Source of the DNA: Nephromyces sp. MM_2019
Taxonomy: Eukaryota > Apicomplexa > Aconoidasida > Nephromycida
Direction of reading: 5' to 3'
Length of the DNA: 14,736 nucleotides
Assembly (NCBI GenBank): GCA_015657535.1
Contig: JADHZB010000353.1
Coordinates: forward strand, 1-14,736
Shown here in pieces: positions 1 through 14,736 of the stretch. How positions within the stretch are numbered: position 1 is the stretch's first letter; each line of letters begins with the position of its first letter. A program made the position numbers and the translations under genes. The notes below the pieces were generated by a model that was not told where the DNA came from, searched no databases, and was given only the letters and a program-made list of their open reading frames with translations.

Positions 1-15
1 CCCCCCCAAACTAAC

Positions 16-169
16 CCTTATCATATCGGATACCCCCCTAATCGCATCAAATAGATCCTGTGGCTCAGAGAGGTAGTTAGCGTTAATATAAACTTTACTA
101 TCTGCTGTTATACTAATTTTGCCTCTGCTTTTCGGCTCGGAAGTAAAGTAGAAGGTGGAAACAGCTCGC
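16..169 (-). CDS. GMC exon: start of C-terminal GMC domain
   Basis: The acceptor is CATCCTCAG before 169, entered in phase 2. The reading frame runs AVSTFYFTSEPKSRGKIS, then NYLSEPQDLFDAIRGV. It aligns with the conserved C-terminal GMC stretch of the form P-x-S-x-G-x-x-x-L ... N-Y-x-x-x-P-x-D-L-x-x-x-x-x-G. The phase-0 donor AGG/GTTAGT at 15-10 leads into a G-run on the coding strand, so the exon most likely ends at 16. Reading could instead run on past the window edge. The active-site His, normally about 100 residues further on, is not in the window. Confidence 0.8.
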
Positions 170-3100
170 CTGAGGATGTGTGTGAGAAAAATTTTGATGT
201 TAAATGGGGGGTGAAGAGGGGGGTGGAAAAGGGGTGTTAAAATGGGGGAAACTTTGCTATGAAGGGAAAAAATGGGGGATAAACATAAGGGGAATACTTC
301 AATAGAGGGGGGGTTAAAAATTTGGGGGGTGAAACATGGGGGGGTTAAATATGGGGGTGGTAGATATAAGGGGGGTTAAACATTGCCTTGGGTACACATA
401 AGGGAGGTTAAGCCTAGGCTGGTTAAACATAAGGGGGTAAAACCTGGGCTTGGGGTTAAGATTAATAAGGGGGGTATGTAGACGCTTATATAAAGGGTGT
501 GGGGTGACTGATCAAGTATATAGAGCCCCCCAAGGCGGAGGGTAATCGAAGTGGAGAGAGATAAAATTTAAAGGGCGGAAAGCTTCAGATATCCTCGAGG
601 AGGGAGGAGTTAAAGAGTGGAATACTAAAGCAATGAGATGGCTAATCTTTGATACAGTAAAACTTATGGAGGTGGCTGCGTAGGAGCGGCGGAGAAACCT
701 TCTTAAACATCTCAACACGCACACTCAAGTAATCGCATCAGCAATGATGTCTTCAGATTTTCACCTGGTCATACACACGCCTTAAGCATCCCCCAATCAC
801 CCACACACACACCTCCCGCTGCACACAGTCTGATGCTTGAAGCCCAAAACCACCTAACCCATTACCTAAAGCAGTCCCCTATCATTGATATATGCTTGCA
901 AATGCTCCTTATCTTCAACCCAAATAGAGAGTTTTCTGGGCTTGAACAGCTTCTGATTAAGCCAAAGAGGAAGTCAATGAAGGGATCGTCACGCCAAGGA
1001 GGAGGAAAGACAAACCTCGTCGAGTATATCACACCTTCTGTGACGCCTGAGCCGTGCAACTCCTCTTGGGCAGAGAGAGAGCAATGAAAGCTCCTATCTC
1101 CCACACTGAAATACACACACAGTAGAGTATACGCCTTTTCTGCTTGTGTGTATAAGACGGTTAAAACTCATGTGTGTGTGTGTGTAAGACTGTTAAAACT
1201 CGTGTATGTATAAGACGATTAAAAGTCGTGTGTGTGTTGCTTGTTTTGATGTTTTAATAAGAGAAGGATGTCTGAGATGAAGATGTAAACTAGAGAGAGA
1301 ATACACAAGAAGACACACACATTTACTGTGTGATGAAACACGTGATCAAGAATGAAGCTGTTTTGCTGATTTCGCACACACAAATGGATAGAAGCAGAAG
1401 AAATGAAAAGGATTGAGAAAAACGTCAAAATCAGCAAGAAAGCAAACTCAAAAGCACTAGCAATGACTTGACAATAAGTAGCACAAAGTGCATACACCGA
1501 CAGAGGGGCAGTCAAAGAGATACAGAGAGAGACACAGAGACATACAGATAGAGACAAACATACAGACATACACAGAGATGTTCAGAGATATAGACACACG
1601 GAGACATAGCATCACAGGTGCAATCAGAGACTCAGAAGCACATCGACACACACACACCTGAAATTGTCACAATCAGGACCAGCTTTACGTAAACCAACGT
1701 AAGGAGCTACTATAGGAGGTATTTGAGGATAGTCTAGCACATTGAATTGGTCGAAGAAAGCCCCGATAGGTATTAGAACCCTGTCGCTAAAGTTTCTGCC
1801 TAAGTCAGGGATTTCTTTGATGAGGGGAACTCCAACCTCTCTGATTTCTTCCAAAGGCCCAACACCTAAGATAATTGGTGTGTGTGTGGGGGTATGTGTG
1901 TATGTGTGCCATATTTCTGAGTGCTTGAGCATGTAATATGCACTGTGTGCGCTTCTGTCGGCTGTAGGCATGAGAATCTGCAGTGTGTGTGTGCGTGAGT
2001 TTGGAGGTAGTGTGTGCAAGTGCGAGTGTGTGTACGTGCGAGTGTGTAAGAGTGTAGGGGTGTGTTTGTTTGTGTCTGTACGAGTGCAAGCATGTATGAG
2101 TGTCTTTGAAGTGTCATTTTTATCGTGTCTGCGGATGCATACCTGCTGCGTTAATGGTAAGCTCGCGTGTGCGGAATATTTGCACTGTATATATGCATTG
2201 TGTCGGCGTGGTGAGCAACCCTAGTATGCATGCCGTTGAGGGGTTATACACACTAAATTGTGTGTGTAACTACGCGTATGCATATCTTGAATATAACTAC
2301 ACTTTATCGTATTATTTTGCTTGATAAAGCTTATGGCGTGTGTGTACGGCCTGGTGGTAAGGCTTATGGAGCAATATCACATCCTATTTTTCTGTCAATC
2401 CCTGCTAGTTCCACACACACCATTACTTTGCAGATATAGAGGTGGAAAGCGTGCGTGAATTTCTGGGAATAAGCTAAAACATCCTCTATTGTGCGGACAT
2501 TGCTTCAGGTATGCCTGCTTGACGCACACACTGCTTAATACATATCTGCACTAGTACCCTCATACACACACTTATCCGTAGAAACACACACGAATACACA
2601 CGCTGTCGTACATACACATTGATTTATATGCAAATACACAACTAATTATACGCCCACACACAATGCTCCATACAACCTCACAAGACAGCTCTAACATACA
2701 ATGCCCCTCATCCATACACACACACGCAACTACTCATACGCACACACATACATGCACCTACCACATTCTGCTGCTAATCTCTCCAAACGGAAAGCTTACC
2801 AGATTTATAGAGTAGTAGACTAGTAGGTATAGCTCCAGTCGAAAGTATTATTTCACCTCCTTCTCGCACACAAGCCCTATAATGTCCCTTGCGTTTTTGA
2901 AAGAAGTAGTTTACCATGAATGCATACTTGGAGGCTATGCTATGCTGAAACGTATAAAAGAGATCTGCAAGCACACACAGAACACAAAAGGCTCAGTATT
3001 TTCATGATGAGAGCACCTTGAGATATACACATGTGTGCTGGAAATAAGTATGTGAATATCTTCATACATCTGAGAATTCAGTCTTTCTTGAGGTGCGCAG

Positions 3101-6100
3101 GCTGCTGTGTGTGATGCTGTGGATCTTACTATGTGTGTGATGCTGTGGAGGTCAGAGTGTGTGTGGTGCCGTGGAGCTTATTATATATGTGATGGCGCTG
3201 AGCTCATTGTATGTATGATGCCTGGAGGTTAGTATATGCCGGATACTGCAAAGCCTATAATGCATGTGATACTCGGAAGCTAGGTACGGGTGATACTGCA
3301 AGGCAGAGTGTCTGTGATTATCTTTAGCTTATTGTGTGTAATCCTTCCTAGCTCAGTGTGCGCTCAATATTTGGCAACTTATAGTGTGTGTGGAAAGGCT
3401 TGCTAATATTTGAAGATAAGTCTTAAAAAAAGCCCAATTTTTCATAGGTTTTCACTAAGAAGGTGCACTCATCATATAGGGCAATCACTAGTGAGTAACC
3501 TGTCCAGTAGCCTAGAGAGAGAAAGTCTGGTCTCCGACTGTATATAGGAGCGAAGTCTTCTAGTACGGTTTCATGATAATGCACACACTTTGCCGTTATT
3601 CCGGTATCTAGTTGCTCGAACTCTACTCTCTGAAGGATGTTGAGATGATGATAAGAGCAATCGAACGATGCGAATATTGTGCATATTCTAGCAGGAAGGC
3701 AGGAGCTGATAGAGTGAAGAGCCTGTACAAGTAGCTAGAGTGAAAAAGCTACACAAGTAGTTAGAGTGAAGAGACCGATTATACCTGTTAATCGCTAGTG
3801 CTAGAGTCAAGAGCTTGATTCTCTTAGTAATAACTCGCATGCTAGATATAAGATAATTCTACTGCCTAGAAACCTGCGTGTTTTTCTATCAGCCTCATTA
3901 GAGACATGCATAAACCAGCAGAAATATCATCAAATGGCACACACACTTTTATCTAGCCCTACAGAATATCGAAGTTAAGCTGCCTAGAAACAGCGAGTTT
4001 CACTCTTTCTAGCAAAGCGATTTCAATCTGCTGGTCCTTAATATTTATCAGCTAGCTTGTTTAAGGATACAGGCTCTCTGTAGCCTTAGCTAATGCTCGT
4101 GCTTCATCTGCCTCCTGAGTTATACTATTTTGCTATTACAAAATAGCATAAATTCTCAGGAAGCACTTGTATACCTTGTGTAGTACAATAAAACTTTGTC
4201 GGAACTATGATTTTATGAAGAAAAAAAGACTTCTTTATTGGGAAAGAGCTGTGCATTCTGTTTGGTTTTTTGAAGCAGTGTGTGTAGAAGTGTGTGCAGC
4301 TTTGTGTGATGGCGTAGTGTTTGAGTTATACGCTATAGGAACACCTTGTCTTGGAAGCAGGCTAATCCGTCCCCTAAACTGTGTGTGTGTTTGAAAAAGC
4401 TACCAGTTCGTCTAAAAAAAACCTAGTTTCCTCACCAATCTCTATCGGTCTCCTCAACTGTGTGTGCGCTTCATTTTTTCACGAATACACCACTCTCCTA
4501 ACGCACTCATACCATTCATTTTTCACAGAACTTGTAAGCAAGTCCCACTGCTTGAACTACACACACGTTACTTCTGCTAGTAACACACATCCAATTATTC
4601 TACGCCTAGAACTGCGACCAGTGCAATCTCTTCTCTATAAGCTACCATTCACTTGCACACACCTCGACAGTCATCTCCGGCTGCACTGTGAGAGTAGTAG
4701 GTCGCATAGATACGACGTTACTTCCTCCTCTTCCAAGGAGCACATCTGCTGCCATCCTAAAGAATTTCCTTGCGGGATCAAAGAGAGAATAGCTTCTCCA
4801 TACATAACCAGGTGATATCTTGTGTGTTAGCTGTGGCTCTTGCTTAGCTCTCCCCCAAGCAGAAGAAGCAGTGCTCTCTTCCGATCGAGAAGGCTGGCTA
4901 TTTGGTGCATACCCTATCGAATGAAGGCCGCTAGCGTAGAGGAGGGATACCTTATCGGCTACAGCAGGGCTAGCCACCCTATCTCTTACCCAAGCGAAGG
5001 CCTAGAGAGTTGGGAAAGGTATGTGTGTGTATTGGGGATATGCTAGGAGGTTATGTATGTTTGGGATATGCTAGGCGGTTATGGGTGTTGGGAACATGCT
5101 AGGAGGATGCGTGTGCTAACGCAAATTGTATGTCTTGAGAATGCGTGTGTGGTGGTGTATTTTGTGTGGGTATAGATGTGGAGTGCGTGTGCGGCTATAC
5201 GTGATTGGTGTGTCCGTAGGTATAGGGGAAGCATTAGTATATGGGAATTGTGTGTGTAGCTATACATGCTATATACGTGTATGATATTACTACGATCTGA
5301 TAGATCCCCTCTGTGTGTGATGCGTAAATTTACGACATATAGTGTGTCCTGTGATGATGGAATACGCCGTGTGTGTGAAACTTGCATCTTATTTGTGCTA
5401 TGTGCAAGCTATTTATAGTGTGATATGTTATACTTCTGAGTTGTGAGGGCAGGGTATGAGAATGTTTTTTTTTTTTGCATAGTGGTAGTTAGAATTTACT
5501 TGTGGGGATTATTTTCTACTTTGTGGGTGTGTGTGTGTGTAGGGTGAGCTGCTTTCTCCTATCAAAGAGGTATATGTACGGGTTAAGTGAGAGTGTACAT
5601 TCCCTCTTTACCTCTGGTGGTCTAAGCAATCAAGTGTGCGCATAGCAAAATGTTTAAACTATCGTAAACACAAACATACACGCACACACAAAGAAGAGCT
5701 CCAATCCTAGGCGATGTACCAAGAGAAGTATCTTCCTCATTTTAAAAATCCCTCTAGCCTCTAGCAATGCTAGAGGATCGATTCTACTACCTGATTGATG
5801 AGCTGATTATCCCACAGGTCCCCATGCTCTTGTTTTAAGTAATTGAAGAATTCCTCCTCTTCTTCAATATATATCGCCATGTTAATGCTAGAGCCTCCTC
5901 CCATTACACTACCAATGTGTGTCCGTACACCCTGGGTAGTTGTTATTCTCTGGCTGACGACTGGGTCATCAATCACTAGCCCCGCTCCACTCATATCTCT
6001 AGTTAACTTAGCTACAGGAGCATCACGTTCTGGGCCTCTCTCTAGAAGAAGCACCTTCTGACCTATGTGTACGAAAAAGATTAGGAATTTTTGCCTAGAT

Positions 6101-7751
6101 TCAACGTTAGAAGTGCATTCTAAGGTTTAGGGAGGGGGAGGTGTCAGTATGCTTTAATTTGTGCGCGTGTGTACATGTGGAAGAATGCACACACAGATTT
6201 GTGTGTGCGTGTGCGCGTGTGGAAGGGTGCATATCGAAGCATGTGCCTGTGTGTGTGTGCAGATGGCAATGGCATACAATCAACGGTATTGGCCCTAAAG
6301 GAGTAAATCTTCTTTTTAAAGTATTCTCGCACTTATCTACTATCTATAGGTTGAGTAAGTCGTTGTGTGCTTACGTCTATCGCATACATGATAGTCTTAT
6401 GTTATGCTGTGCAAAATCTATGAAAATCTTAGTATCACACACTAGATAAAATCTACTGCACACACAGTTCTTTCAAGAGGTTCAGGCAAGCGAAACATTC
6501 ACCTCCACATATAGTGTATGGATGTCGTATCTACTTGAGTATGCATATGTATTCCAAGCATACGGCATACGCACGATACACAATCTACCTAATCCCTCCC
6601 CCTCCACCCACACACGATACATATTCCATCTAATCCCCCCTGCACACATATCACGCACACACCCACCGCCCACACACATGTATATACTATCTAATTCCCT
6701 ATTTTTTTGTAGCCATACCAGCACTAGCTAGCGTATAAGCTAAGGGGCATCCGGCAACACCAGCTCCGACTATAATGTAGTCAAATCTTGTAGGTATCTC
6801 GGTTGTTGCATTTAATGATGTGTTGTATACAAATCCCAGCACTGCTTCTTCTACAGAAGTAAAGAAAGCTCTAAACCACTTGATCATTCCATGAGGAGTA
6901 AGCCACAAGCTTAAAGGATCTGTATCTCCATATACATCAGCCCCAAGCAGCTTTCTTATCCGTCCAAAGGGGTTAGAATCATTGCTACTTCCTCCTCCGA
7001 ATTCTATGCTGCTGTTAAGCTTTGCTTCTTGTGTGTTAGAGGAAGCATCACACATTTTGTGTGCACCGTATGAGGAGATTTCATCTTCTAGGGGGTTCTC
7101 GGTAAGAAGTCTAGTTTCTGAAGCTGATATAGCAACCGAATTTTTCCCCTCAGGAACAGTAGAAACTAGCGATTCCTTCTCACTAGCATTGTGCCTAGCG
7201 TCTATATGCCTTAAGCTACTACCCTGTAAATCTTCCGTTGCAATAGCTTTGCTCGGGCTCATGTGTGTTATCCAATGCAGACCTAGGTTCTCGCTTTGCT
7301 GTGAATCAAGGTATAAGCCTTTTTCATTTTTGCTGTTAGAGGCTGTAGGGTAAGTGTGTTGATTCTGCACCTGTGGGTAGGCTGTTGGTGTGTGACTTTT
7401 CTGTGGAGATCTAAGCTGAAGGTTATTACCTGGGTTACTAGACTCTAATGCTTGTTCATCTGTGTGTGTTGCTTGATTGTTAGTTGCTTCGGAGCGTGTG
7501 TGTGGTGGTTGATTGGGATCTCCTGAAATGTAAATATGTGATGGTTGATAACCAGCTCCCGGTGTGTGTGTGTATGGTGGCTGATACCCCACCCCAGGTC
7601 TCTCCCTGTATTGTGATGTCTGCAAACTCTCTGCTGCCACTGGAATGCCTAGTAGCGTGAGAGCTACAGGAGAGTAGACTAGCCATCCCAGTGTTAACAT
7701 CAGCAGATAAAGCATACTGCCAATAAAAAAAAGATGGTAATGATGCTTCAT
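16..7751 (-). CDS. GMC-family FAD-dependent oxidoreductase, HOTHEAD-like, split gene (3' end outside the window)
   Basis: The gene model is join 7751-6719, 6062-5791, 5001-4663, 2944-2800, 1865-1658, 1105-866, 723-664, 169-16, all minus. Every junction is GT..AG and all phases agree, giving 817 codons without the candidate cassette exons 4132-4071 and 3705-3456. In order it shows: a hydrophobic N-terminus (residues 7-40); a Thr/His/Ser-rich linker (about 45-310); the Rossmann motif GAGVAG (329-334); the ADP-ribose-binding Glu in VLLLERG (about 352); the first GMC signature, GSVMGGGSSIN (395-405); the second region, EIILSTGAIPTSLLLYKSG+VGP; the LGRNFSDR motif; and the start of the C-terminal GMC domain (PKSRG..NYLSEPQDL). 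AGCPLAxTLA, VLLLERG and GGGSxIN resemble plant HOTHEAD/mandelonitrile-lyase proteins more than bacterial choline dehydrogenases. Family members oxidise alcohols, or cleave cyanohydrins, using FAD. The substrate here is unknown. The catalytic His/Asn motifs lie past base 1. The hydrophobic N-terminus suggests secretory or membrane location (inference). Confidence 0.85.
170..663 (-). repeat. Intron with purine G-run repeats (C-rich in the transcript)
   Basis: This is the intron between the last two GMC exons. From about 190 to 480 the plus strand carries an irregular repeat of runs of 4-7 G separated by TTAAA, TTAAACAT or ATAA, with a unit of about 17-25 bases. In the transcript this puts C-runs in the acceptor half. 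The donor half has a G-run in the transcript (CCCCCC on the plus strand at about 526-531). No (TG)n tract of note occurs, so this intron replaces the TG/CA system with G/C runs. No coding sequence was recognised inside. Confidence 0.7.
664..723 (-). CDS. GMC exon: short 60-base exon (placement tentative)
   Basis: Phase 2 enters after ACTTGAG and leaves at CATAA/GTTTTA. This reads VRVEMFKKVSPPLLRSHLHK and bridges the preceding and following exons without a stop. It was chosen because it is the one reading I found that satisfies both phases. The longer overlapping open frame (724-512, reading RRFLRRSYAATSISF and so on) has no usable phase-matched donor before its TGA. This part of GMC proteins is poorly conserved, so homology cannot decide. 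Confidence 0.45.
866..1105 (-). CDS. GMC exon: variable region between FAD core and C-terminal domain
   Basis: The acceptor is GTGTATTTCAG (1 base left in phase 2) and the donor is TTTAG/GTAATG (phase 2). It encodes about 80 residues including HGSGVTEGVIYSTRFVFPPP and WRDDPFIDFLFGL. It contributes to the substrate-domain region, where HOTHEAD-type proteins diverge. The open frame and phase match on both sides support it. The downstream intron (865-724) is only 142 bases and contains a 7-bp inverted repeat, AAGCATC (784-790) with GATGCTT (832-838). Confidence 0.7.
1106..1657 (-). repeat. Intron with TG block (1146-1235) and CA blocks (1314-1657)
   Basis: On the plus strand the TG tracts lie beside the downstream exon and the CA tracts beside the upstream exon. 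As transcribed, the donor half is therefore UG-rich (it starts GUGUGUGUGUGU) and the acceptor half CA-rich. The middle is very pyrimidine-rich on the coding strand. A 116-codon open frame here (1569-1219) is low-complexity Leu/Ser/Cys and is treated as intronic. A short stretch just after the AG at about 1356 could be an extra exon ending at a GTAAAT donor, but this is unproven. Confidence 0.6.
1658..1865 (-). CDS. GMC exon: VGP... / LGRNFSDR region
   Basis: The acceptor TTATCTTAG/GT completes the Gly codon split at 2800, giving KSG-VGPLEEIREVGVPL. This matches the conserved GMC stretch LxLSGIGPxxxLxxxGIPxxxDLPGVGxNLxDH. The protein continues KEIPDLGRNFSDRVLIPI. The usual His of the xDH motif is Arg here (SDR), as in HOTHEAD-type members that lack it. 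The donor TTTCAG/GTGTGTGTG is in phase 2. The acceptor has only a weak pyrimidine tract. Confidence 0.85.
1866..2799 (-). repeat. Intron (934 bases) with TG half (1878-2350) and CA half (2410-2760)
   Basis: The plus strand is dense in (TG)3-6 tracts from 1878 to about 2350 and in (CA)3-5 tracts from about 2410 to 2760. In the transcript the donor half is UG-rich and the acceptor half CA-rich, so the ends are complementary. Both neighbouring exons join directly at a conserved GMC motif (KSG-VGP), so no coding sequence is needed inside. The short open frames in it are repeat products (Val/Cys/Ser or His/Thr). Confidence 0.75.
2800..2944 (-). CDS. GMC exon: ...EIILSTGAIPTSLLLYKSG
   Basis: The pyrimidine-rich acceptor CTCTTTTATACGTTTCAG is in phase 0 and the donor TCTG/GTAAGC in phase 1. 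It encodes ASKYAFMVNYFFQKRKGHYR, followed by EIILSTGAIPTSLLLYKSG. The first part matches the GMC strand usually written RAVGVEY; the second is the VILSAGAI motif next to the second GMC signature. An alternative acceptor 19 bases upstream (GTGCTTGCAG) would be in phase 1. Confidence 0.85.
2945..3455 (-). repeat. Intronic minisatellite around GTGTGTGATGCTGTGGAG
   Basis: From about 3102 to 3400 the plus strand holds degenerate copies of TGTGTGTGATGCTGTGGAGCTTA at roughly 26-33-base spacing (clear copies near 3106, 3132, 3158 and 3185). The array decays towards 3400. This unit was not seen in any other intron of the window. Apart from the TG core it contains nothing recognisable. Confidence 0.65.
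3456..3705 (-). CDS. Candidate extra GMC exon (cassette B), about 83 codons
   Basis: The acceptor TTCACTCTATCAG is in phase 2 and the donor TTCTTA/GTGAAA in phase 0. The frame is open for about 105 codons in total, has no ATG, and has a normal, non-repetitive composition. It reads for example LNILQRVEFEQLDTGITAKC, then VLEDFAPIYSRRPDFLSLGY. Phases fit exactly between cassette A and the 2944 exon. Because the flanking exons (5001-4663 and 2944-2800) also join in phase and in family alignment, this would be an optional insert of about 104 residues with cassette A. It sits in the variable loop before the RAVGV-like strand. I recognise no domain. It could also belong to a nested transcript. Confidence 0.4.
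3709..3775. repeat. Short tandem repeat, unit about 26 bases
   Basis: There are three degenerate copies beginning TAGAGTGAAG/A at about 3710, 3735 and 3762, joined by GCCTGTACAAGTAG-like spacers. They lie immediately upstream (on the minus strand) of candidate cassette exon B. They carry no TG/CA core, unlike the other intronic arrays. Confidence 0.55.
4071..4132 (-). CDS. Candidate extra GMC exon (cassette A), 62 bases
   Basis: The acceptor TTTGTAATAG (or TATAACTCAG, 18 bases later) is in phase 0 and the donor GAGCCT/GTATCC in phase 2. It reads QNSITQEADEARALAKATES, a charged helical segment unlike the surrounding repeat DNA. It sits between a CA tract (3937-3947) and a TG block (4255-4390), the position exons occupy elsewhere in the window. 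It is in phase with both the 5001-4663 exon and cassette B. Confidence 0.4.
4133..4662 (-). repeat. Intron with TG (4255-4460) and CA (4560-4662) blocks
   Basis: The donor GAG/GTGTGTGCAAG at 4662 opens a UG-rich donor half in the transcript. The half nearer the candidate cassette is CA-rich in the transcript (TG on the plus strand). Two long plus-strand frames here (4167-4394 and 4381-4815) run across the intron into the antisense of a conserved exon and are not genes. If the cassettes are skipped, the intron runs from 4662 to 2945. Confidence 0.6.
4663..5001 (-). CDS. GMC exon: AFAWVRDRV ... TTLTVQPEMTVE
   Basis: The strong acceptor TTTCCCAACTCTCTAG and donor GAG/GTGTGTG are both in phase 0, giving exactly 113 codons. 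The protein reads FAWVRDRVASPAVADKV, then LHSIGYAPNSQP, a Ser-rich loop, SPGYVWRSYSLFDPA and finally TTLTVQPEMTVE. It follows the GMC pattern: a W-x-x-x helix, the A-G-x-x-x-G-Y segment, the S-A-x-x-Y-L-like stretch and the N-L-T-V-x-x-x-x-x-V strand. It corresponds closely to HOTHEAD SYPWVEREIV...EVGV. Confidence 0.85.
5002..5790 (-). repeat. Intron with TG half (5020-5540), CA half (5668-5690) and a 31-base repeat
   Basis: On the plus strand, TG tracts run from just outside the 5001 exon to 5540, including a perfect (GT)7 at 5527-5540. A CA cluster lies at 5668-5690 on the donor side. Between about 5034 and 5112 there are three copies of GGGATATGCTAGGAGGTTATG-like sequence, spaced about 25-31 bases. 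A T10 run lies near 5466-5475. The flanking exons join inside a conserved GMC segment, so this is non-coding. Confidence 0.75.
5791..6062 (-). CDS. GMC exon: FAD-binding loop and first GMC signature
   Basis: The acceptor CACATAG/GT completes a Gly codon split at 6719, giving LASAG-QKVLLLERGPERD. The donor CAATCAG/GTAGTA is in phase 0. The first GMC signature is GSVMGGGSSINMAIY. The conserved Glu of LLLERG binds the FAD ribose in this family. An unusual run of five Glu (IEEEEEFF) follows the signature, where most members have a short RG...D turn. The acceptor lacks a pyrimidine tract (CGTACACATAG). Confidence 0.88.
6063..6718 (-). repeat. Intron with TG half (6160-6265) and CA half (6425-6680)
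   Basis: The donor CTG/GTATGG is at 6718. In the transcript the donor half has UG tracts (CA on the plus strand at 6605-6680) and the acceptor half CA tracts (TG on the plus strand at 6160-6265). The splice joins the Rossmann helix to its second strand exactly, so no exon is missing here. Confidence 0.75.
6719..7751 (-). CDS. GMC exon: hydrophobic N-terminus, low-complexity linker, Rossmann start
   Basis: Translation from the ATG at 7751 (context CCACCGATGA) begins MKHHYHLFFIGSMLYLLMLT, a hydrophobic segment ending near GIPVAAES that would serve as signal peptide or anchor. Residues about 45-310 are a linker rich in Ser, Thr, Asn and Gln. It holds a two-copy PG(V/A)GYQP(P/S) repeat and several Thr-His pairs encoded by CA tracts. 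FDYIIVGAGVAGCPLAYTLA closes the exon. Four synonymous against two replacement differences between the PG-GYQP copies support this frame. A linker this long is not usual for GMC enzymes. If the upstream exons are real, this Met is internal and the hydrophobic stretch is an internal membrane segment. Confidence 0.8.
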
Positions 7752-7811
7752 CGGTGGCCCCTATAACAGCATTAGCAGTAATAGCATTGGAATTGGCATG
7801 ATAAGACTTAC
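7752..7811 (-). other. 51-base mini-intron, or upstream ORF just before the GMC ATG
   Basis: GTAAGT at 7811 and TTATAG ending at 7761 would define a 51-base phase-0 intron, after which GGG CCA CCG leads into the ATG at 7751. Unspliced, the same bases encode a 12-codon ORF, MPIPMLLLLMLL, whose TAG ends 9 bases before the ATG. Both readings are direct from sequence; only RNA can choose. The intron would be far shorter than the others and has no TG or CA tract. Confidence 0.45.
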
Positions 7812-7940
7812 TTTTCTCTTTCTTTGTGCCTCATTTCCAAGCCTATGAGCTACTAAGCGATAATCTACACTGTTAAACCTAGTATCCTCAATGGCATTAT
7901 TACTACTTCCTCGGCCAAATTTAGATATCGGCAAATGCGG
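7812..7940 (-). CDS. Possible upstream exon of the GMC gene
   Basis: This has the best acceptor in the window (TTTCTCTCTTTTTCTTCTTTAAAAG, before 7940) and a consensus donor, AAA/GTAAGT. It is exactly 43 codons in phase 0. It reads PHLPISKFGRGSSNNAIEDT, then a basic end, AQRKRK. Splicing into 7760 stays in frame with the ATG at 7751. It may instead be 5' untranslated. FGRGSSNN recalls FGGGSSND in the next exon, which may be chance. Confidence 0.45.
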
Positions 7941-8580
7941 CTTTTAAAGAAGAAAAAGAGAGAAACACACCGTTTATATGGGATTTTCTACTATTTTATA
8001 CATCAATAGCTGAGAAGATGGAAAAAACTAGCTTTCCTAGTGTTAATGTATCTCCTGTTTTTCAAGGGTAGCATCTTTCTCTAGTTGAAGGAATGGGGTA
8101 TGCGTATGTCTATGTATGTGTGTTTTTATTGGTGGTGTAGTTTGGAGAACATCGCTAGAATGTATGCTTGTAGTAGGATGATCTCGAAAATGAGAGTTGG
8201 TGTGTATGTATGTGTGTTTTTAGTAGGTTGGCGTGTAGGTGTGTGTTGCGTATGTGCTGGTGTGTGCGTGCGTTGAGTAGTTTTGTGTGTACGTATGTGT
8301 GTGGCGTTATGTGTTGGTGTGTATGTGCGTTGAGTAGGTTGGTGTGCATGTCTGTGTGTATTACGTATGCGTTGGCGTGTATATCTCTGTGCATTGCATA
8401 TATGTTGGTGTCCATGTGTGTTGCGCATATGTTGGTGTCTGTGTCTGAGTGAACGCGCGGGCATATATCGGTGTGAATCTATGTGATTGCGTTTTGTGTG
8501 TTATTGAACTCTATGGGTGTGTGTTCTTCTGTGTCTTAGTATGCGCGTATGTATTAGTTCCTATATGCACCTATATACAC
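7941..8580. repeat. TG-rich minisatellite (8100-8550)
   Basis: Degenerate units of about 30-33 bases of the form TATGTGTTGGTGTGTATGTGCGTTGAGTAGG are clearest at 8215-8450. Both strands have open frames across it (for example 8464-8126 and 8210-8452), but their proteins are only His/Thr or Cys/Val repeat products. If the flanking exons are real, this is an intron that has TG on the plus strand throughout and breaks the TG-then-CA order seen elsewhere. Confidence 0.65.
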
Positions 8581-8757
8581 AAGGCTTATAAGACTAATAA
8601 GCTCAGCACTCGATAACTCAGCAATACAAAGCGTGTTTCCTCTCTCATTCTCTACAGCGTATCTGCTAGAAGTGGCAGAAGCTCGTCTAAAGGCTTTTGT
8701 ATCACACAAAAACGCCAGAAACAGCAATAGAAACAGAAGCTGAAGTGGAATGCTTAG
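8581..8757 (-). CDS. Possible signal-peptide exon of the GMC gene
   Basis: After the acceptor CTTACAG (8758) the minus strand reads LSIPLQLLFLLLFLAFLCDT, then KAFRRASATSSRY, and reaches the phase-0 donor CTT/GTGTAT. The sequence is a textbook signal-peptide core with a plausible cleavage site after TKA. No ATG lies in frame within the exon. A 10-codon first exon at 8871-8842 (MNCLVTSELP) would supply one. The plus strand also has a strong acceptor (CATTCTCTACAG, about 8657) and donor (GTAAGT, about 8760) around the same bases, so strand is uncertain. Confidence 0.35.
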
Positions 8758-9009
8758 CTGTAAGTACACTGGAAATCTTTTTCAGTGAGAAAAATACAGT
8801 AAAGAGAACTTCTCTGGCTGCTAGTGTTGTGTGTGTGCTACTGGCAGTTCGCTTGTTACTAAGCAATTCATTCGCAAAGTTAAACTAGGGGTGATAGTTG
8901 CTAACTTGTGGCTTTTATTGAAGTCACTGTCGTAATAAATTTGATAGGAGGCTGTAGGGCAGGCAAAAGAGCTTGCACGAAAACACTACACACTAGGCTA
9001 TGTTAGGAG

Positions 9010-9240
9010 TACTTATGACGTATGTGGATGTGTGTGGGCGTATGCATATGGGGATGTGTGCGTGTTACGTGCGTGTGTTAGCTGTTTTTGCTACCCGAGT
9101 GTGCAAACTGTGTATCTCCCAACCCCGTGTGCCAACTGTATTTGCTACAACCCATGTGTGCTAACTGTGTTTTCTTCCCGTGTGTATGCTCTGCTATGCC
9201 CCCTACCCGTGTGCGTGCTAGCTATGTTACTTCTGCAACG
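9010..9240. repeat. Minisatellite around CCCGTGTGTGCTAACTGT
   Basis: Roughly six degenerate copies of CCCGTGTGTGCTAACTGT followed by TTTGCTAC, at about 30-base spacing, run from about 9075 to 9235 after a TG-rich lead-in. The 81-codon plus-strand frame across it is Cys/Val/Leu-rich repeat translation, so it is left out as a gene. Positions 8872-9009 show nothing recognisable. Confidence 0.55.
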
Positions 9241-9455
9241 TATTACTCTGCCTTTACTTGACTTAAAAATGCTTTGAAAATAAATCTGCAAACCTGCTTT
9301 TAACCATTACGTTGGTGGTGTGTGTATCCAACTATGATGGAGACACACGCTTAAGCTAGGGATTTAAAAAAGGTACTCATGCAGTGTCCATAAAGCGTAC
9401 ACACACACACAGTTAGAGCGTAGCATCTTCTCCTTCTTTCCATTACTATTGCTAA

Positions 9456-9714
9456 GGCAACTACTAGGTTTAATGATTTTGTGTTTGTGGAATTTCTAGA
9501 TTGCAAGATGCCTAGAAATCTAGCAACAAATCGGGTTAATGATTACGTGTGTGTGGAGCGTTTAGATTGCAAGATGATTAGAAATCTACTTCAAGGCCTT
9601 ATTTTACGCACAACACGGCGTAATTTAGGCTACCTTTCGTCACGTAAGTTAACTAATCAAGAGTTTCATAATACGCTCATTTTGGCGATGACTGCGCAGC
9701 CTAGTGTTGAATGA
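9456..9714 (+). CDS. Unrecognised plus-strand ORF, possible terminal exon
   Basis: A good plus-strand acceptor (CTTTCCATTACTATTGCTAAG) precedes 9456. The frame stays open for 85 codons to a TGA at 9712-9714, with a GTATGTGTGTG donor-like sequence 4 bases later. It begins ATTRFNDFVFVEFLDCKMPR and contains a 22-residue tandem repeat, NDFVFVEFLDCKMPRNL / NDYVCVERLDCKMIRNL. The protein is basic with no known motif. No upstream partner exon was convincingly found. It could be a chance frame or the relic of a coding exon. Confidence 0.3.
9471..9595. repeat. 66-bp direct tandem duplication
   Basis: The copies begin at TTAATGATT near 9470 and 9536. They share GATTGCAAGATG and TAGAAATCTA at the same spacing. 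The first is degenerate in the GTGTTTGTGG part, where the second reads GTGTGTGTGG. The period is a multiple of three and keeps the plus-strand frame open. Confidence 0.7.
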
Positions 9715-10050
9715 TTGTATGTGTGTGTCTTGGGTGGTTTGTTTTGGAGAGGATATTTAACAAAACAGAGTAGTTCAACTTTGGATATTCTCTCCTCCAG
9801 TCTCTGTCTTGTACTGTTTAGTGCTTACGCAGGAGCTTTGCCCGATTAGTAGAAAGAAAGCTTCCTTTGATTTCTCCTATAAGGTAGCAAGAAGATGTAA
9901 AATGCAATAAGAAGGTGTAAGGAGAACGTTTGATAATAAAAGAGGTAAAGTTTTCCTGTGTGTGCGTGTTTGTATTTTTTGGTTTAGCGGCTGCCTTTAA
10001 TGAAAGCAGCACCTTTCAACATATCCATACTTTCTGAGGAGAGGCACGCA

Positions 10051-10215
10051 GTTTTGCACACACGGATATGCTACTCATCATAGAAAGGTTCACACACACC
10101 GATATGCTATTCATCATAGAGAGGTTCACACACACAGATATGCTACTCATATGCAGTTTCATACACACATGCTACTCATACTCAGTTTCACTCATAGATA
10201 TACTCCTCAAGCAGG
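10051..10215. repeat. 36-base CA minisatellite
   Basis: Units of TTCACACACACCGATATGCT followed by ATTCATCATAGAGAGG begin at about 10053, 10089 and 10125, then shorten to about 30 bases and decay by 10215. In frame they encode a 12-residue repeat (FTHTDML-IIER), but both the reading and the decay look like repeat translation. CA tracts continue without a unit to about 10320. Positions 9715-10050 hold no recognised feature. Confidence 0.65.
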
Positions 10216-10330
10216 TGAACAGCTTCACACAGGCTCACGCACATACATACACACTACGCTTTGCCTCACATGCCCGCGTGTATAGCAGATGTTTAACATA
10301 CACACACGCTATGACTAGCCTAAACTTTTA

Positions 10331-10856
10331 GCTTTAAGCCTTTTGCTCGTACACGCGGACACTATATATGCCACATACAAAGTAAAATTCAAGCAGCTGA
10401 GGTAGGGTGAAATAAAATAAACGCACACTTTCCCAGTACAACGATCATATGTGTGTGTGGTATTCAATCCTTTTCAGCGTGTCTGCTTCAAAGGACCCAG
10501 TTTCCAAAGATGTATAGCTTTGTATGTTCGCATCAATTTTAGTATCTTAGTATAATACACTACTCTACTAACATGATAGCAGCCAGAGCTTGTGTGCAAA
10601 AGTCTGTGTGTGAGAGAGACCTCTAATGTTTGATGATTTCTACTTTTGTGCGCGAAAATTCAGAGACTATAATAATTTCTAGCTACCCCTCAGTTCTAAA
10701 CTTGGAAACTACCCTTTATGAGAGCTTTTGTGCTAAGCAGTCTAGCGAGGTGTTTGAGTTTCTAGGTTTTTAGGCATTTTCTTGTGGAGGGAAGCTAACG
10801 GAGCTTCACAATGAAAATGAAAGCGTTAAGACTCATACGCAGCTATTCGGCGCACA
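10331..10856. other. Non-repeat island with exon-like stretches on both strands
   Basis: There is no confident gene. On the plus strand, CAATCCTTTTCAG at 10464-10476 precedes an open stretch to about 10546. A 46-codon ATG frame at about 10635-10772 reads MISTFVRENSETIIISSYPS and onwards. On the minus strand, a TTTATTTCACCCTACCTCAG acceptor near 10400 precedes LLEFYFVCGIYSVRVYEQKA and a stop. Another minus frame ends MRTYKAIHLWKLGPLKQTR near 10478. These compete with one another, so none is called as a gene. Confidence 0.25.
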
Positions 10857-11100
10857 CACAGATTTACTTTGTGAGTGCATACTGGGATGAATAGCTAAGC
10901 GTATAGGTGGCTATTTAAATTACACGCACACACACACGTACATACACTAACTAGCTATACACTGGGATGAGTTCCTGTAGTCATGGCTTGCTGCTTATCA
11001 CACACGCACATTTATCGTATACATACTGGGATGAACTCCCGTACTTACACCTTACTATTTACCAAGCACGCAAGCACAGCGTGCCTATATAATCGGCTCA
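10857..11100. repeat. Degenerate repeat with CATACTGGGATGAA core
   Basis: The core CATACTGGGATGAA/G occurs at about 10878, 10957 and 11022 (spacings 79 and 65), separated by CA tracts and sequence that varies. CA tracts carry on to about 11340. Confidence 0.5.
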
Positions 11101-11340
11101 CTACCTACAAAAGTTACTATGTTAACACGCACACATCCACAGCTCACCCACTTGCTTAAAGATGAATGCCTGCACGCACATAAGGAAACACTGATTGTCT
11201 ATATACTTAAAGAATGCCTGCCTACTTACCTGCAGTACTTGAGGGACATGAAAGATAGTGCGATATTAATTAGCTAGAGTACTCACTATACACACACACA
11301 CAAATACACGCACACAGGCACACTTACAATTGACACACAA

Positions 11341-11460
11341 ACTCGTATTTTTTTCCTTGCGGTGTAAATGCAGTAGTTTACGGGCAGCATGCAGTACCAG
11401 CAATAGCAGTGCACTAGTAGAAATTTGAGTATAGACAGATAACGACATTTACATATTCTC
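11341..11460 (-). other. Exon-like island with ATG and hydrophobic segment
   Basis: On the minus strand the ATG at 11448 opens MSLSVYTQISTSALLLLVLH, followed by a basic stretch (ARKLLHLHRKEK). It then runs into a GTTTGTGTG donor-like sequence and a TG-rich region in the transcript, as real exons here do. The hydrophobic segment would act as a signal or anchor. No phase-consistent partner exon was established. Positions 11461-11660 hold nothing recognisable. Confidence 0.2.
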
Positions 11461-11660
11461 CTGCTTGCCCAGTGCGTGTGTGTATGCGCACACATGTTGT
11501 ACTCCTGTCTTATAAATTGCAGCCTGCCTCTGTAGCACTAGGAAAAAGCTAGGTCCCAGGAGGTGCTTTGGGGGCTGCCCTAAGTGTGCGTGTGTGGTAG
11601 ACCCTTTCTTGCGTTCGTGGCAGCTAGCTTTAATGCGCGCAGGAGCTGATATGGGGTGTG

Positions 11661-12345
11661 CATGTAGTAGGTATCACCTGTGTGTGTGATGGCTAGCGCG
11701 TGCATGTGTGATGGATAGCATGTGTGTATGATGGCTAGCGCATGTATGCTATGGCTAGCCTTTGTGTGTGTGATGGCTACCTTGCGTGAGGTATTGACTA
11801 GCGTGTTTGTGTTGGTATGATGGTTGCTAGCACGTATACGACATTTAAAGCCTGTCTGCGTATAATGGCTAGCGCATATGTGTAGGACTGCTATCCTGTG
11901 TGCTATGGCTACCGCGTGTGTCTGTACGACTGCCAGCCTGTGTGTTATGGCTAGCGTATGCGTTCATGTCGGCTAGCGCGTGTGTGTCATGGCTAGCGCA
12001 TGTGTGTTGGTGTGATAGTTGCTAGTATGCACGTGACAGTTTGAGCGTTAATACGACGCCTAGCGTGGAGAAGATGCCTAGAGCGCGTGTGTGCGTGATG
12101 GCTAGCGTGTGTGCAGGTGATAGCTAACGTGTGTTGGTATGATGGTTGCTAGCATGCATGTGACATTGAGAGCTTATTTGCGCGTATGATAGCTAGCGTC
12201 CATGCCATGGCTAGAGCGTGTGCGTGGGTTTACTAGCACGCGTGTGTGACGTCAAGCGGGTGTGTGTGATGGCTTACTTATCCATGAGCGTGCGCTAGCG
12301 CGTGTGTGACGGCCAACATACCCATGGGTGCGTTCTGCAGCGTGT
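11661..12345. repeat. TG/GCTAGC minisatellite, about 680 bp
   Basis: This is a long degenerate array of GTGTGTGATGGCTAGCGCGT-like units, mostly 20-28 bases, with about a dozen exact GCTAGC palindromes. Longer variants (TGTTGGTATGATGGTTGCTAGCA, followed by ACATTTAAAGCC- or ACATTGAGAGC-like tails) recur near 11815, 12005 and 12135, suggesting a higher-order unit of about 130-190 bases. It has no coding content and is the largest array in the window. Confidence 0.8.
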
Positions 12346-12399
12346 GTGTAAGCTGCCTAGCAAGTCTATAGCTACTGTAGTGCAATATGTTATAAGATC

Positions 12400-13322
12400 C
12401 TACATCAACTGCAAAGCTTTTCCTAGTATCTCTAGTAAGAGCTTAAGCAAAACAACTAGAAGCTCGAAGTATTATTTTGTGCATAGGCTGCTATCCTGCG
12501 CGCAGCGGTGTATATCGTGTGTGTGCGCACACTCGCAGTCAACGTGTGCTAGCCTGTGTGTGTAAGAGTTGAACCACTAAACCATGGTACGGCAAACTCA
12601 TAGCTCATTGAGGGCAGCCGCAATAACGGGATTTTCGCATTACTTCGCTCAAGGAAATGATAAAAAATGTACACACACAAATGCACACATGCACATCCAT
12701 ACACCTACTCACCCACGCCAACCCACTAATACACATCCATACACACGCATCCATACACACACACCAGCCCACACACACTTTCATATCCAGTGCTGCCAAG
12801 CATAGCTACACAACTACATAATTCGCACACAACATAACCCCCCCTGATTTTCGCAACAAAGTCGTTGCTTCAGCCTAAAAAACCTACAAACCGCTTCAGA
12901 GTCTGAAGGAGAGAAAACAATGCTCTTCCAACAAAAAGATTTACTACGCTGAAGGCGAAAACTCAAGGAATACGGCTCCTTTCACACACACCAACCAACA
13001 CGCACACAATATGAGAATGCTGCGAAAACATCAATCAATTCCCATTCAACCCAGTAGACTTGATACTGACGAATTTAGTAAAATTAGTGTAACACACACA
13101 TGAAGATAAAGGTAGTATAAAGAACTAGAAAGGAAAAATACCAAAGTTAAGAGCAAGACTAATATACAGTTATCTTCAGTAGTTTCAACTACGTGTGTGT
13201 GTGAGTCTAGATTTAGCACCAGGATGGGACTCCGTGGGGTAGCAGCATCTTCCATAGTGAGACAGTATGTGATGACGTGGATGTATCCTCAAAGTTACAT
13301 TCGCCGGTATTGAAAGGATTAC
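12400..13322 (-). CDS. Speculative four-exon minus-strand gene fragment
   Basis: Exon-like islands 13322-13220, 12948-12888, 12647-12575 and 12455-12400 join with GT..AG ends and matching phases (1/2, 2/0, 0/1, 1/stop). They give about 96 codons ending ...LLKLLLEILGKALQLM and TAG. The protein is Leu-rich, helical and unrecognised; parts read NPFNTGECNFEDTSTSSHT and LLPHGVPSCVVNLFVGR. No clear start was found; a Met lies inside the first exon. Competing readings exist: an ATG with strong context at 13255 in another frame, a plus-strand ATG at 12584, a plus-strand frame at 12350-12510, and MGLRGVAASSIVRQY on the plus strand at about 13224. With permissive splice sites such a chain can arise by chance. 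Confidence 0.22.
12660..12840. repeat. CA-rich tract
   Basis: Dense CACACA tracts separated by CATCCAT or CACCCA at 12670-12780 have no stable unit. The overlapping open frames on both strands (12584-12805 plus, 12799-12605 minus) are mostly His/Thr or Cys/Val translation of these tracts. Confidence 0.6.
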
Positions 13323-13382
13323 CTCAAATTATCAGTAGGCAACGTATTTAGTAGCATTGCATATGCACACATACATGACAAC

Positions 13383-13560
13383 GCACACACACAAAACGTA
13401 CTCAGTAGCACTGCACACAAGCAACGAAAAAAAATACACGTCACAGTGAAGAAAAGCAACAAACACACACTAAGTCAAAGTGAATACAAGAAGCAAACAC
13501 ACATACACGAAGTCACAGTGAAGACAAGCAACAAGCAAACACACACAAACTACAGATACA
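13383..13560. repeat. CA minisatellite with AGTCACAGTGAAGACAAGCA unit
   Basis: Three copies of GTCACAGTGAAGAAAAGCAA followed by an ACACAC tract begin near 13439, 13473 and 13511, a spacing of about 36 bases. A looser CA region precedes them. Positions 13561-13788 form the likely 3' flank of the FoP gene. One 58-codon minus frame lies there (ATG at 13744), which I do not call. Confidence 0.6.
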
Positions 13561-13788
13561 CTACTGCCTAATCACACTCTATGATGACACTAACACACTT
13601 GAAAACACCACAAAAAGATGGCTTTACTCCCGTCTTTCGATACTTCCAAACTCTAATGAATATCAAGTCTTCAGCAAAGATTTTTGCCGTGAGTGTGTGA
13701 GTTGATGAGAAAAGCAATAGCCGGTGGAGGATGATCTGCCGCATTGAGTAAAGAAATGGGCCCTACATAAGATCTCCAGCTATGGACC

Positions 13789-14736
13789 TCATTCCATGAA
13801 TGTAGTAGTAACTGAAAAGAGCAGCGAGAATATGAGGCGATGAGGGGGGTGGGGGGAGAAGGGGAGGGGGAGGAGAGAAGGGGGTGGAAAGGGAAAGAGG
13901 GGGGATAGACAACACGAATGGGAACAGCAGGTGAGAGGGTGCACATTCATGAAATGGCGTTTCCCCCCAGGAGACACATACAGAGATACACACACAAGGA
14001 CACACACTCGACATCATGACCCTCAAATATGGTTAACACACATCCCTTCAACACGAGATACTCAGCACCTTCAAAAGCAAACATCCAATCCATCACTTCC
14101 ATACCATTCATAACCTCCCCCCACCACTCCTTCAACTCCACACACACACCATATACCTTCAAACTCTGGAGCTACTTTCTGCTCTTCGACAGCACCTTGA
14201 GCTGCAAACCTTCCAAAGTATGCATCCAAATCAGCATCAAGTCGCTTCTTCACCGACGTCTCTCCCATATATTTCTCTAGTTGGGCATCCTGTGTGTGTG
14301 AAGCAGCAAGGAAGCAGGTTAAACTCCTTGTACACTATATGCGAGTCAAAATGCCGACTTAAAAAGGTGTGTACTTTAAGGAATACACTTTCAACAAGAC
14401 GATACCAAGCACACACACACATTCAACGTAAAACCAAACGCACACATACAAGATGATATGAGGCACACACACACAAAAGGATGATACCAAACACGCAATA
14501 TACACAAACATGATACGAAGTACACACACACAAGATGATACCAACCAACTACACAAGGTGATACCAAGCACACACAAACTCAACCAAACATCCAGCACAC
14601 ACACACACTTCAAACAAACCCTCTCACCCTTCCATCCTCAAGCAACTCACCAACATATCCTTCAAGCCAGAGGTTTTCTGGGCAGCATTACCTCCCCCTT
14701 GTTTGTTAAACCTCTGACGGCCACCCCTTCCCCTCC
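13789..14736 (-). CDS. RG-rich FoP-domain RNA-binding adaptor (ALY/REF- or CHTOP-like), 5' part outside the window
   Basis: The model is join 14736-14651, 14289-14157, 13811-13789, minus. Phases are 0 (GTGAGT donor at 14650, CACACACAG acceptor) and 1 (GAAG/GTATAT donor at 14156, CTGCTCTTTTCAG acceptor). The visible C-terminus reads RGRGGRQRFNKQGGGNAAQ, then SGLKDMLDAQLEKYMGETSV and KKRLDADLDAYFGRFAAQG, ending VTTTFME and TGA. The paired LDxxLxxYM / LDADLDAYF motifs after an RG-rich stretch are the hallmark of the C-terminal FoP duplication found in ALY/REF (THO subunit 4) and CHTOP. These are nuclear adaptors that couple splicing to mRNA export. An RRM, if present, would lie beyond 14736, so the exact subfamily is open. 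The last exon could alternatively splice near 13759 to a longer tail. Confidence 0.75.
13812..14156 (-). repeat. FoP intron 2: G-run / C-run intron
   Basis: The plus strand has a G-rich purine tract at about 13840-13905 (acceptor side, C-rich in the transcript) and a C-run at about 14114-14124 (donor side, G-rich in the transcript). GTGGGGGGAG and its exact complement CTCCCCCCAC occur at the two ends. CA tracts at 13980-14010 and 14138-14149 give UG tracts in the donor half. Confidence 0.7.
14157..14289 (-). CDS. FoP gene exon: paired LDxxL motifs
   Basis: This exon of 44 codons plus one base carries both FoP motifs (DAQLEKYM, LDADLDAYF) and an acidic tail (VEEQKVAPEFE). It is entered in phase 0 straight after LKDML, so the first motif (LDAQLEKYM) is built across the splice junction. 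Confidence 0.8.
14290..14650 (-). repeat. FoP intron 1: CA minisatellite at donor side, CA/TG pairing
   Basis: Degenerate copies of GATGATACCAAGCACACACAC, about 33-37 bases apart, run from about 14398 to 14610 on the plus strand. That makes the donor half UG-rich in the transcript. A single TGTGTGTG at 14291-14300 (plus) gives a CACACACAG acceptor. The unit is not shared with any other intron in the window. Minus frames across it are Cys/Val/Ser repeat products. Confidence 0.7.
14651..14736 (-). CDS. FoP gene exon: RG-rich segment (cut by window edge)
   Basis: The open frame reads RGRGGRQRFNKQGGGNAAQ, then KTSGLKDML, and ends at the consensus donor TTG/GTGAGT. RG repeats in this class bind RNA and are targets of arginine methylation (known for the family). 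The upstream part is missing. Confidence 0.75.

What the first reader, a model, noticed from the sequence alone, without database searches (positions are those of the whole stretch)
1106..6718. Introns with UG-rich donor halves and complementary CA-rich acceptor halves
In the GMC introns 6718-6063, 5790-5002, 4662-4133, 2799-1866 and 1657-1106, the plus strand always shows a TG block followed by a CA block. As transcribed, the 5' half is (UG)n and the 3' half (CA)n, so the ends can base-pair and bring donor and acceptor together. FoP intron 1 (14650-14290) does the same. Several acceptors (CGTACACATAG, CAATTATCTTAG) have poor pyrimidine tracts, as expected if structure helps define the intron. 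Paired GT/AC repeats at opposite intron ends have been described in fish introns as a structural aid to splicing. I know of no description in a protist.
Basis: partly seen in the sequence, partly recalled or inferred. Interest (0 to 1): 0.85.

Follow-up and report, generated by a model that had tools for sequence, protein, structure and literature searches.

The report
Introns UG-rich first, CA-rich last
Introns in a sea-squirt-dwelling relative of Toxoplasma tend to begin UG-rich and, more weakly, to end CA- and C-rich, but the two ends do not behave like matched partners, so they look more like separate signals or oriented repeats than a designed hairpin that splices the gene.

Summary
The window belongs to the Nephromyces assembly (Apicomplexa), probably a species mixture. 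In 41 homology-anchored introns from 25 other contigs the donor half is TG-rich (28 vs 5) and strand composition flips from G-skewed to C-skewed (33 of 41). Acceptor-side CA is weaker (21 vs 9). Pairing as a general mechanism is not supported: UG and CA amounts are uncoupled (rho 0.03); real donor-acceptor pairs bind no better than swapped ones; CA-rich acceptors have normal pyrimidine tracts; a U2AF2-like gene is present; predicted pairing across the exon is as strong as across the intron. End pairing beats shuffles in 5 of 6 window introns but 7 of 41 elsewhere. Best reading: donor-side UG clusters act as an intronic splicing enhancer, the acceptor side being a separate, weaker tendency; oriented neutral repeats are the main rival, and whole-genome motif counts did not show the polarity. 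Not found described in the searches made, but not a new splicing mechanism on this evidence.

The parts
6063..6718 (-). GMC intron 1: TG tracts in the donor half, CA tracts in the acceptor half; end-pairing z -3.1
   Evidence: frame continues LASAG|QKVLLLERGP
5002..5790 (-). GMC intron 2: mostly CA throughout, one short TG stretch near the donor; z -3.7
4133..4662 (-).
   Evidence: exon 2876-2800 by GMC frame
1866..2799 (-). GMC intron 5: clear TG half then CA half; z -2.8
1106..1657 (-). GMC intron 6: TG half, then CA with a TG tract at the acceptor; z -2.0
7960..13760 (.). non-coding stretch between the two genes with the same alternating TG and CA blocks (may hold untranslated exons and introns); no excess end pairing in 21 windows tested between 8241 and 13740 (1 below z -2)
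   Evidence: sequence

Best explanation
In repeat-rich Nephromyces genes the transcribed strand of an intron is UG-rich and G-skewed over at least the first 150-200 nt. It is C-skewed, and less strongly CA-rich, over the last 100-150 nt before the acceptor region. SHOWN: these two tendencies, on homology-anchored introns with computed splice sites. INFERRED: the donor-side clusters of short UG tracts (median 8 nt, median spacing 22 nt) work as an intronic splicing enhancer, bound by a UG-preferring RNA-binding protein (CELF/Bruno- or TDP-43-like by function; recalled, and none sought or found here), which helps U1 choose a donor that is itself often GUGUGU- or GUAUGU-like. The acceptor side is a separate composition, rich in C and CA and poor in G, read by ordinary U2AF. 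Pairing of the two ends is possible because opposite skews are complementary, but it is a by-product and not the selected feature.
For: Boundary-free: downstream of 67 exon matches TG coverage is 0.16-0.19 in the first 200 nt, against 0.04-0.08 upstream; CA is 0.07-0.08 upstream against 0.04-0.05 downstream. 41 introns: TG donor half > acceptor half 28 vs 5, Wilcoxon p 4e-5, 0 of 1000 random-window sets. Per contig (25): 15 vs 5 for TG, 16 vs 5 for CA, skew 22 of 25. GC skew +0.24 at the donor and -0.25 at the acceptor, donor > acceptor 33 of 41; with TG/CA tracts masked +0.08 and -0.29, 35 of 41. In 31 repeat-rich introns TG coverage next to the donor is 0.31, 0.32, 0.27, 0.25, 0.19 going inward to 200 nt. 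Ten introns on contigs with GC like the window's (C1050, C523, C950, C1044, C678): TG coverage of the donor half is 0.20 or more in 10 of 10, CA coverage of the acceptor half above 0.10 in 2 of 10. Tracts are short and clustered. UG and CA amounts are uncoupled and native pairs are no better than swapped.
Against: No protein, binding or splicing data exist here; enhancer function is inference. Donor strength and TG density do not correlate (rho 0.12, p 0.43), although an enhancer that makes up for weak donors should show this. Donor-half TG goes with acceptor-half TG (rho 0.50) and against donor-half CA (rho -0.47), as if introns carried one repeat type throughout. TG does not clearly fall beyond 200 nt in the few long introns (0.20, n 8; 0.24, n 4). 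Whole-genome motif counts do not show the polarity: AGGTAAGT followed within 5-35 nt by (TG)4 at 35 sites vs (CA)4 at 23 (p 0.15); TTTTCAGG preceded by (CA)4 at 41 sites vs (TG)4 at 57 or more. TG also follows stop codons in 3 of 4 repeat-rich genes looked at, counting the stretch 150-400 nt after the FoP stop, so it is not strictly intronic. 10 of 41 introns have few repeats of either kind.
Confidence: 0.48

Rival explanations
1. Orientation-biased neutral repeats. Non-coding DNA of this organism is full of (TG)n/(CA)n microsatellites and minisatellites. Their strand is filtered by splicing: GT and CA(G) at the boundaries seed slippage, and other orientations are lost where they disturb signals. 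No tract has a function of its own.
For: About 57,000 overlapping 12-nt TG-repeat hits on both strands in 48 Mb. Minisatellites built around TG tracts in the window. The same alternation lies in the non-coding stretch 7960-13760 and after some stop codons. TG/TG introns (12 of 41) and CA/CA introns (5 of 41) exist, and TG in the two halves is correlated (rho 0.50). No correlation with donor strength.
Against: TG enrichment extends 150-200 nt into the intron in many separate tracts, which boundary seeding alone does not predict. Long UG runs full of decoy GU next to the true donor would be disfavoured if orientation were only filtered (inference).
Confidence: 0.33
2. One reading: the UG donor half and CA acceptor half base-pair, bring the splice sites together and reduce dependence on the pyrimidine tract and U2AF2, as in fish introns with AC/GT repeats.
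For: Window introns: 5 of 6 pair better than dinucleotide shuffles (z -2.0 to -3.7), intergenic windows 1 of 21. Elsewhere 7 of 41 (mean z -0.57). With each end shuffled on its own a slight excess remains (mean z -0.44, n 47, p 0.014). The zebrafish precedent is stated in one sentence of the review PMC9198270 (passage).
Against: No coupling of UG and CA amounts, native pairs no better than swapped. Across-exon pairing as strong. Pyrimidine tracts no weaker where CA is present. Only 6 of 41 introns are of the TG/CA class. A U2AF2-like gene is present.
Confidence: 0.12
3. Introner-like mobile introns whose terminal inverted repeats are TG...CA.
For: Introners with inverted repeats at both intron ends are known in an alveolate, Amoebophrya (passages).
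Against: All-against-all comparison of the 47 introns finds only 4 matches of 23-25 nt (E 6e-4), no shared family. The tracts differ in place and length from intron to intron.
Confidence: 0.03
4. An assembly effect: the polarity comes from one species in a mixed sample, and the window's strong TG/CA form is a property of that species only.
For: Two different CCT-gamma-type genes (C721 and C199), one with TG-containing introns and one without. At a cut-off of 0.08 repeat coverage 31 introns are rich and 10 poor. GC3 of conserved exons runs from 0.18 to 0.50.
Against: On contigs with GC like the window's (C1050, C523, C950, C1044, C678) donor TG is general (10 of 10 introns) but acceptor CA is the minority (2 of 10). 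GC3 does not split the contigs cleanly. This limits, and does not replace, the explanations above.
Confidence: 0.04

Closest known systems
Fish introns with AC and GT repeats at opposite ends (Lin et al., Genome Research 2016, doi 10.1101/gr.181008.114; text not held; known here from one sentence and the reference entry in PMC9198270, from the reference entry in PMC7404189, and from recall)
   Same: Complementary dinucleotide repeats at opposite intron boundaries; potential end pairing in some introns.
   Different: Here the two ends are not coupled, most introns examined lack the complementary acceptor tract, pyrimidine tracts are not weaker where CA occurs, and pairing across exons is as strong.
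UG-rich intronic splicing elements read by CELF/CUGBP or TDP-43-like proteins (recalled; only search listings seen)
   Same: Clusters of short UG tracts close to splice sites.
   Different: As recalled, those elements regulate particular exons; here the tracts occur in most introns examined. No reader protein was sought.
Introner elements of Amoebophrya (PMC7789003, passages)
   Same: Alveolate; [quoted passage not shown]
   Different: Those are repeated families with short inverted repeats, mostly non-canonical introns; here GT-AG boundaries were assumed in the search, and no shared families were found among 47 introns.

Membership tests
Fish-type AC/GT paired-repeat introns | GT-type repeat at one end and AC-type repeat at the other end of the same intron | tested here: inconclusive
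   5 of 6 window introns but 6 of 41 others
Fish-type AC/GT paired-repeat introns | the two repeats co-occur (are coupled) within introns | tested here: not met
   rho 0.03, p 0.87, n 41; rho -0.27, p 0.14, n 31 repeat-rich
Fish-type AC/GT paired-repeat introns | pairing between ends stronger than expected | tested here: inconclusive
   5 of 6 window, 7 of 41 elsewhere below z -2; native not better than swapped
Fish-type AC/GT paired-repeat introns | weak pyrimidine tract / reduced need for U2AF2 | tested here: not met
   pyrimidine fraction 0.63 (15 CA-rich acceptors) vs 0.62 (32 others); a U2AF2-like gene in six ordered exon matches on C1072, each below the family's whole-protein cut-off; need for it was not tested
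Fish-type AC/GT paired-repeat introns | splicing shown to depend on the structure | not testable with these tools
   needs mutants and RNA
UG-rich intronic splicing enhancer | UG-rich motif enriched in the intron close to the splice site it serves | tested here: met
   but not by bare motif counts over the genome (35 vs 23, p 0.15)
UG-rich intronic splicing enhancer | bound by a UG-preferring protein and increases splicing | not testable with these tools
   no reader protein was sought
Introner elements | introns form families of similar sequence | tested here: not met
   no family among 47 introns

The most novel reading that the evidence does not exclude
One species in the Nephromyces sample, the one the window comes from, really uses a UG-to-CA strand code along its introns. 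The UG donor half and the CA acceptor half fold together often enough to define long introns, making it a first unicellular case of repeat-paired introns, convergent with fish. The pooled, mixed-species test would dilute this.
Probability: 0.13. Interest if true: 0.75.

Novelty: new variant of a known kind. Interest (0 to 1): 0.4.

Why it matters
If the donor-side UG clusters are functional, an apicomplexan lineage has turned a simple dinucleotide repeat into a general intron-definition signal, which gene finders for Nephromyces and its relatives should model. If they are neutral, the lineage is a clean case of splicing imposing strand order on microsatellites. Either way it gives a testable contrast with the paired-repeat introns of fish: does opposite strand skew alone produce the appearance of designed pairing?

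Tried and rejected
Introner hypothesis: no shared intron families among 47 introns. Foreign-DNA worry: the window's GMC gene has no close relative in the protein search (best-scoring hit 31% identity, a plant (R)-mandelonitrile lyase-type protein; no apicomplexan name seen among the 120 rows listed of 2615 hits, some names cut or missing). A short 73% match over 26 residues lies on C956, the contig whose eIF4A is 80% identical to that of Cardiosporidium cionae. A second copy of the window's locus for comparative folding: none found with the first exon's frame of 353 residues as query. C199 and C388 are identical over 2938 bases at contig ends, so an unmerged overlap and of no comparative use. 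Whole-genome motif counts gave no polarity and are told as a result against. Donor strength and intron length against TG density: no correlation. Rfam and ARAGORN scans of the window: nothing.

Rows dropped before counts: 12 of 59 introns (profile gap off by more than 3 residues, or shorter than 120 nt; named). Of 50 CCT matches 40 lay in DNA fetched by then, 3 of them on C388 and set aside as duplicates; 2 more (C88) were fetched later. Of 39 DEAD matches 30 were used. Of 146 kinase matches 48 were used, chosen as neighbouring exon matches with compact gaps. A few kinase matches were trimmed to the fetched stretch with my estimate of the far profile end, which does not touch the intron side. 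Splice sites are computed choices (GT-AG preferred, frame, profile contiguity), not RNA-supported; the scoring rule was set after I had seen the candidates; some choices inside TG tracts are close calls (for example C142:21637, two candidates with equal scores). The exon-anchored count does not use them.

Full report
What was examined. The window is contig C188 (bases 1-14736) of a 48.28 Mb, 1127-contig assembly. Its contig C568 is 287,191 bases long. The Nephromyces assembly is described as 1,176 contigs over 5 kb with a maximum length of 287,191 bp (PMC6320678, passage). The eIF4A of this genome is 80% identical to that of Cardiosporidium cionae and 79% to several coccidian ones. I therefore take the organism to be Nephromyces, an apicomplexan living in the tunicate Molgula; the contig counts differ slightly (1127 against 1,176). 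[quoted passage not shown] In the assembly two different CCT-gamma-type genes occur, on C721 and C199 (the subunit assignment is mine, from recalled signature residues). The assembly is probably a mixture, and every pooled figure below should be read with that in mind.

Check of the observation. In the six named introns TG coverage falls from 0.158 (donor half) to 0.061 (acceptor half), and CA coverage rises from 0.032 to 0.178. The choice was favourable: GMC intron 2 is CA-rich almost throughout, FoP intron 2 has TG but no CA, and a further GMC intron of about 1.2 kb fits poorly. Four of the GMC junctions keep an open reading frame, and the joined protein has GMC-family homologues.

Test without choosing splice sites. 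Around 67 exon matches of CCT and DEAD-box genes, in coding orientation, TG coverage downstream is 0.163, 0.187 and 0.171 (0-50, 50-100, 100-200 nt), against 0.053, 0.041 and 0.081 upstream. CA is 0.069-0.081 upstream and 0.039-0.047 downstream.

Test with computed splice sites. 53 introns outside the window were delimited by neighbouring exon matches of CCT, DEAD and kinase genes, GT-AG, frame and profile contiguity; 41 were kept. TG donor half exceeds acceptor half in 28 against 5 (sign p 6.6e-5), and none of 1000 sets of random windows reaches the mean difference. CA acceptor half exceeds donor half in 20 against 13 (sign p 0.3, Wilcoxon p 0.043), with 5 of 1000 random sets reaching the mean. 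In the terminal 130 nt the TG contrast is 25 against 7 and the CA contrast 21 against 9 (p 0.0057). Taking one value per contig (25 contigs): TG 15 vs 5, CA 16 vs 5, skew 22 of 25. GC skew is +0.24 beside the donor and -0.25 beside the acceptor; with the repeats masked it is +0.08 and -0.29, so the acceptor-side skew is not only CA repeats. By class, TG donor with CA acceptor is 6 of 41; in the window 5 of 6.

Tests of pairing. If ends were selected to pair, introns with more UG should have more CA: rho is 0.03 (n 41) and -0.27 (31 repeat-rich introns); for GC skew, donor against minus acceptor, rho is -0.21 (n 41) and -0.49 (n 6). Native ends should pair better than ends swapped among introns: -51.3 against -53.8 kcal/mol for 36 introns; -66.0 against -66.6 for the six window introns. 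CA-rich acceptors should have weak pyrimidine tracts: 0.63 against 0.62. Pairing should join intron ends rather than bridge exons: duplexes across the exon average -42.6, within introns -38.2, the former stronger in 10 of 15 neighbouring pairs (p 0.17). For pairing: against whole-intron shuffles, 5 of 6 window introns and 7 of 41 others lie below z -2 (the weakest at -2.0 after rounding), and 1 of 21 intergenic windows does. With each end shuffled separately, so that only sequence beyond composition counts, the mean z is -0.44 (p 0.014) with 5 of 47 below -2; the six window introns are -0.9, -2.0, 1.0, 0.6, 0.5 and -1.8. I read the pairing potential as mostly composition.

U2AF2. A profile for the U2AF large subunit matches six stretches in order on C1072 (profile 2-189, 188-246, 244-283, 313-356, 425-472, 467-510; one stretch holds an in-frame TAG), each below the whole-protein cut-off as expected for single exons. 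Other RRM genes (for example on C1127, C307, C741) also match parts of the profile. The factor whose need structure is said to replace in fish appears to be present.

Results that cut against my own reading. Bare motif counts over the whole genome do not show polarity: AGGTAAGT followed by (TG)4 at 35 distinct sites and by (CA)4 at 23 (p 0.15); TTTTCAGG preceded by (CA)4 at 41, and by (TG)4 at 57 or more (only 100 of 160 rows were listed). Most such motif matches need not be splice sites, but a strong universal rule should have shown. TG density does not rise where the donor is weak. TG in the donor half goes with TG in the acceptor half (rho 0.50), which suits a neutral repeat type per intron. 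TG also follows the stop codon in two of three CCT genes from repeat-rich contigs (first 150 nt: 0.15, 0.06, 0.24) and 150-400 nt after the FoP stop (0.36; 0.00 in the first 150), but not after eIF4A (0.00). Upstream of the start codon one gene (C1050) is TG-rich, not CA-rich. So the tendency is one of exon flanks, strongest downstream of exons.

Interpretation. The best-supported statement is compositional: on the transcribed strand, introns of the repeat-rich contigs start G/U-rich in clusters of short UG tracts and end C-rich with some CA. The mechanism I judge likeliest (0.48) is that the donor-side UG clusters serve as an intronic splicing enhancer, with the acceptor side separate. The chief rival (0.33) is oriented neutral repeats. 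Selected end pairing is at 0.12.

Literature. Searches for Nephromyces or Cardiosporidium with introns, for apicomplexan introns with TGTGTG, GU-rich or dinucleotide repeats, for paired AC/GT repeats, for UG-rich/CELF and for intron GC skew (listings of at most 20 papers each) showed no title or abstract start that describes this feature in Nephromyces or another apicomplexan; I did not read those papers beyond the passages named. The fish paper itself is not held and is cited from a review sentence (PMC9198270). The Amoebophrya paper (passages) shows that complementary intron ends have been described in an alveolate protist.

Noticed in passing
window 1-500: Degenerate GGGGGGGTTAAA-type tandem repeats with strong strand skew (periods 12-15 and 32), perhaps subtelomeric.
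   Followed up: no
window 8222-8359, 10057-10150, 11679-11779, 1145-1237: Minisatellites whose units each contain a short TG or CA tract; TG/CA blocks seem to spread partly by local duplication.
   Followed up: partly
L039/L040 (C199 end, C388 start): Two contigs share 2,938 identical bases at their ends: an unmerged overlap in the assembly.
   Followed up: yes
C721 and C199 (L048/L056, L060): Two CCT-gamma-type genes apparently share an intron position near AILREV, but one intron is 844 nt with TG tracts and the other 160 nt without: a sign of a mixed-species assembly.
   Followed up: partly
window 862-7751: The GMC oxidoreductase has a long low-complexity N-terminal extension with a hydrophobic start, and its C-terminal part seems to lie beyond the last exon read (my reading, from recalled family features); closest named relatives are plant mandelonitrile lyase/HOTHEAD-type proteins (about 30%).
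   Followed up: partly
G000:C1072:46595-49824: U2AF large-subunit-like gene in at least six exon matches.
   Followed up: partly
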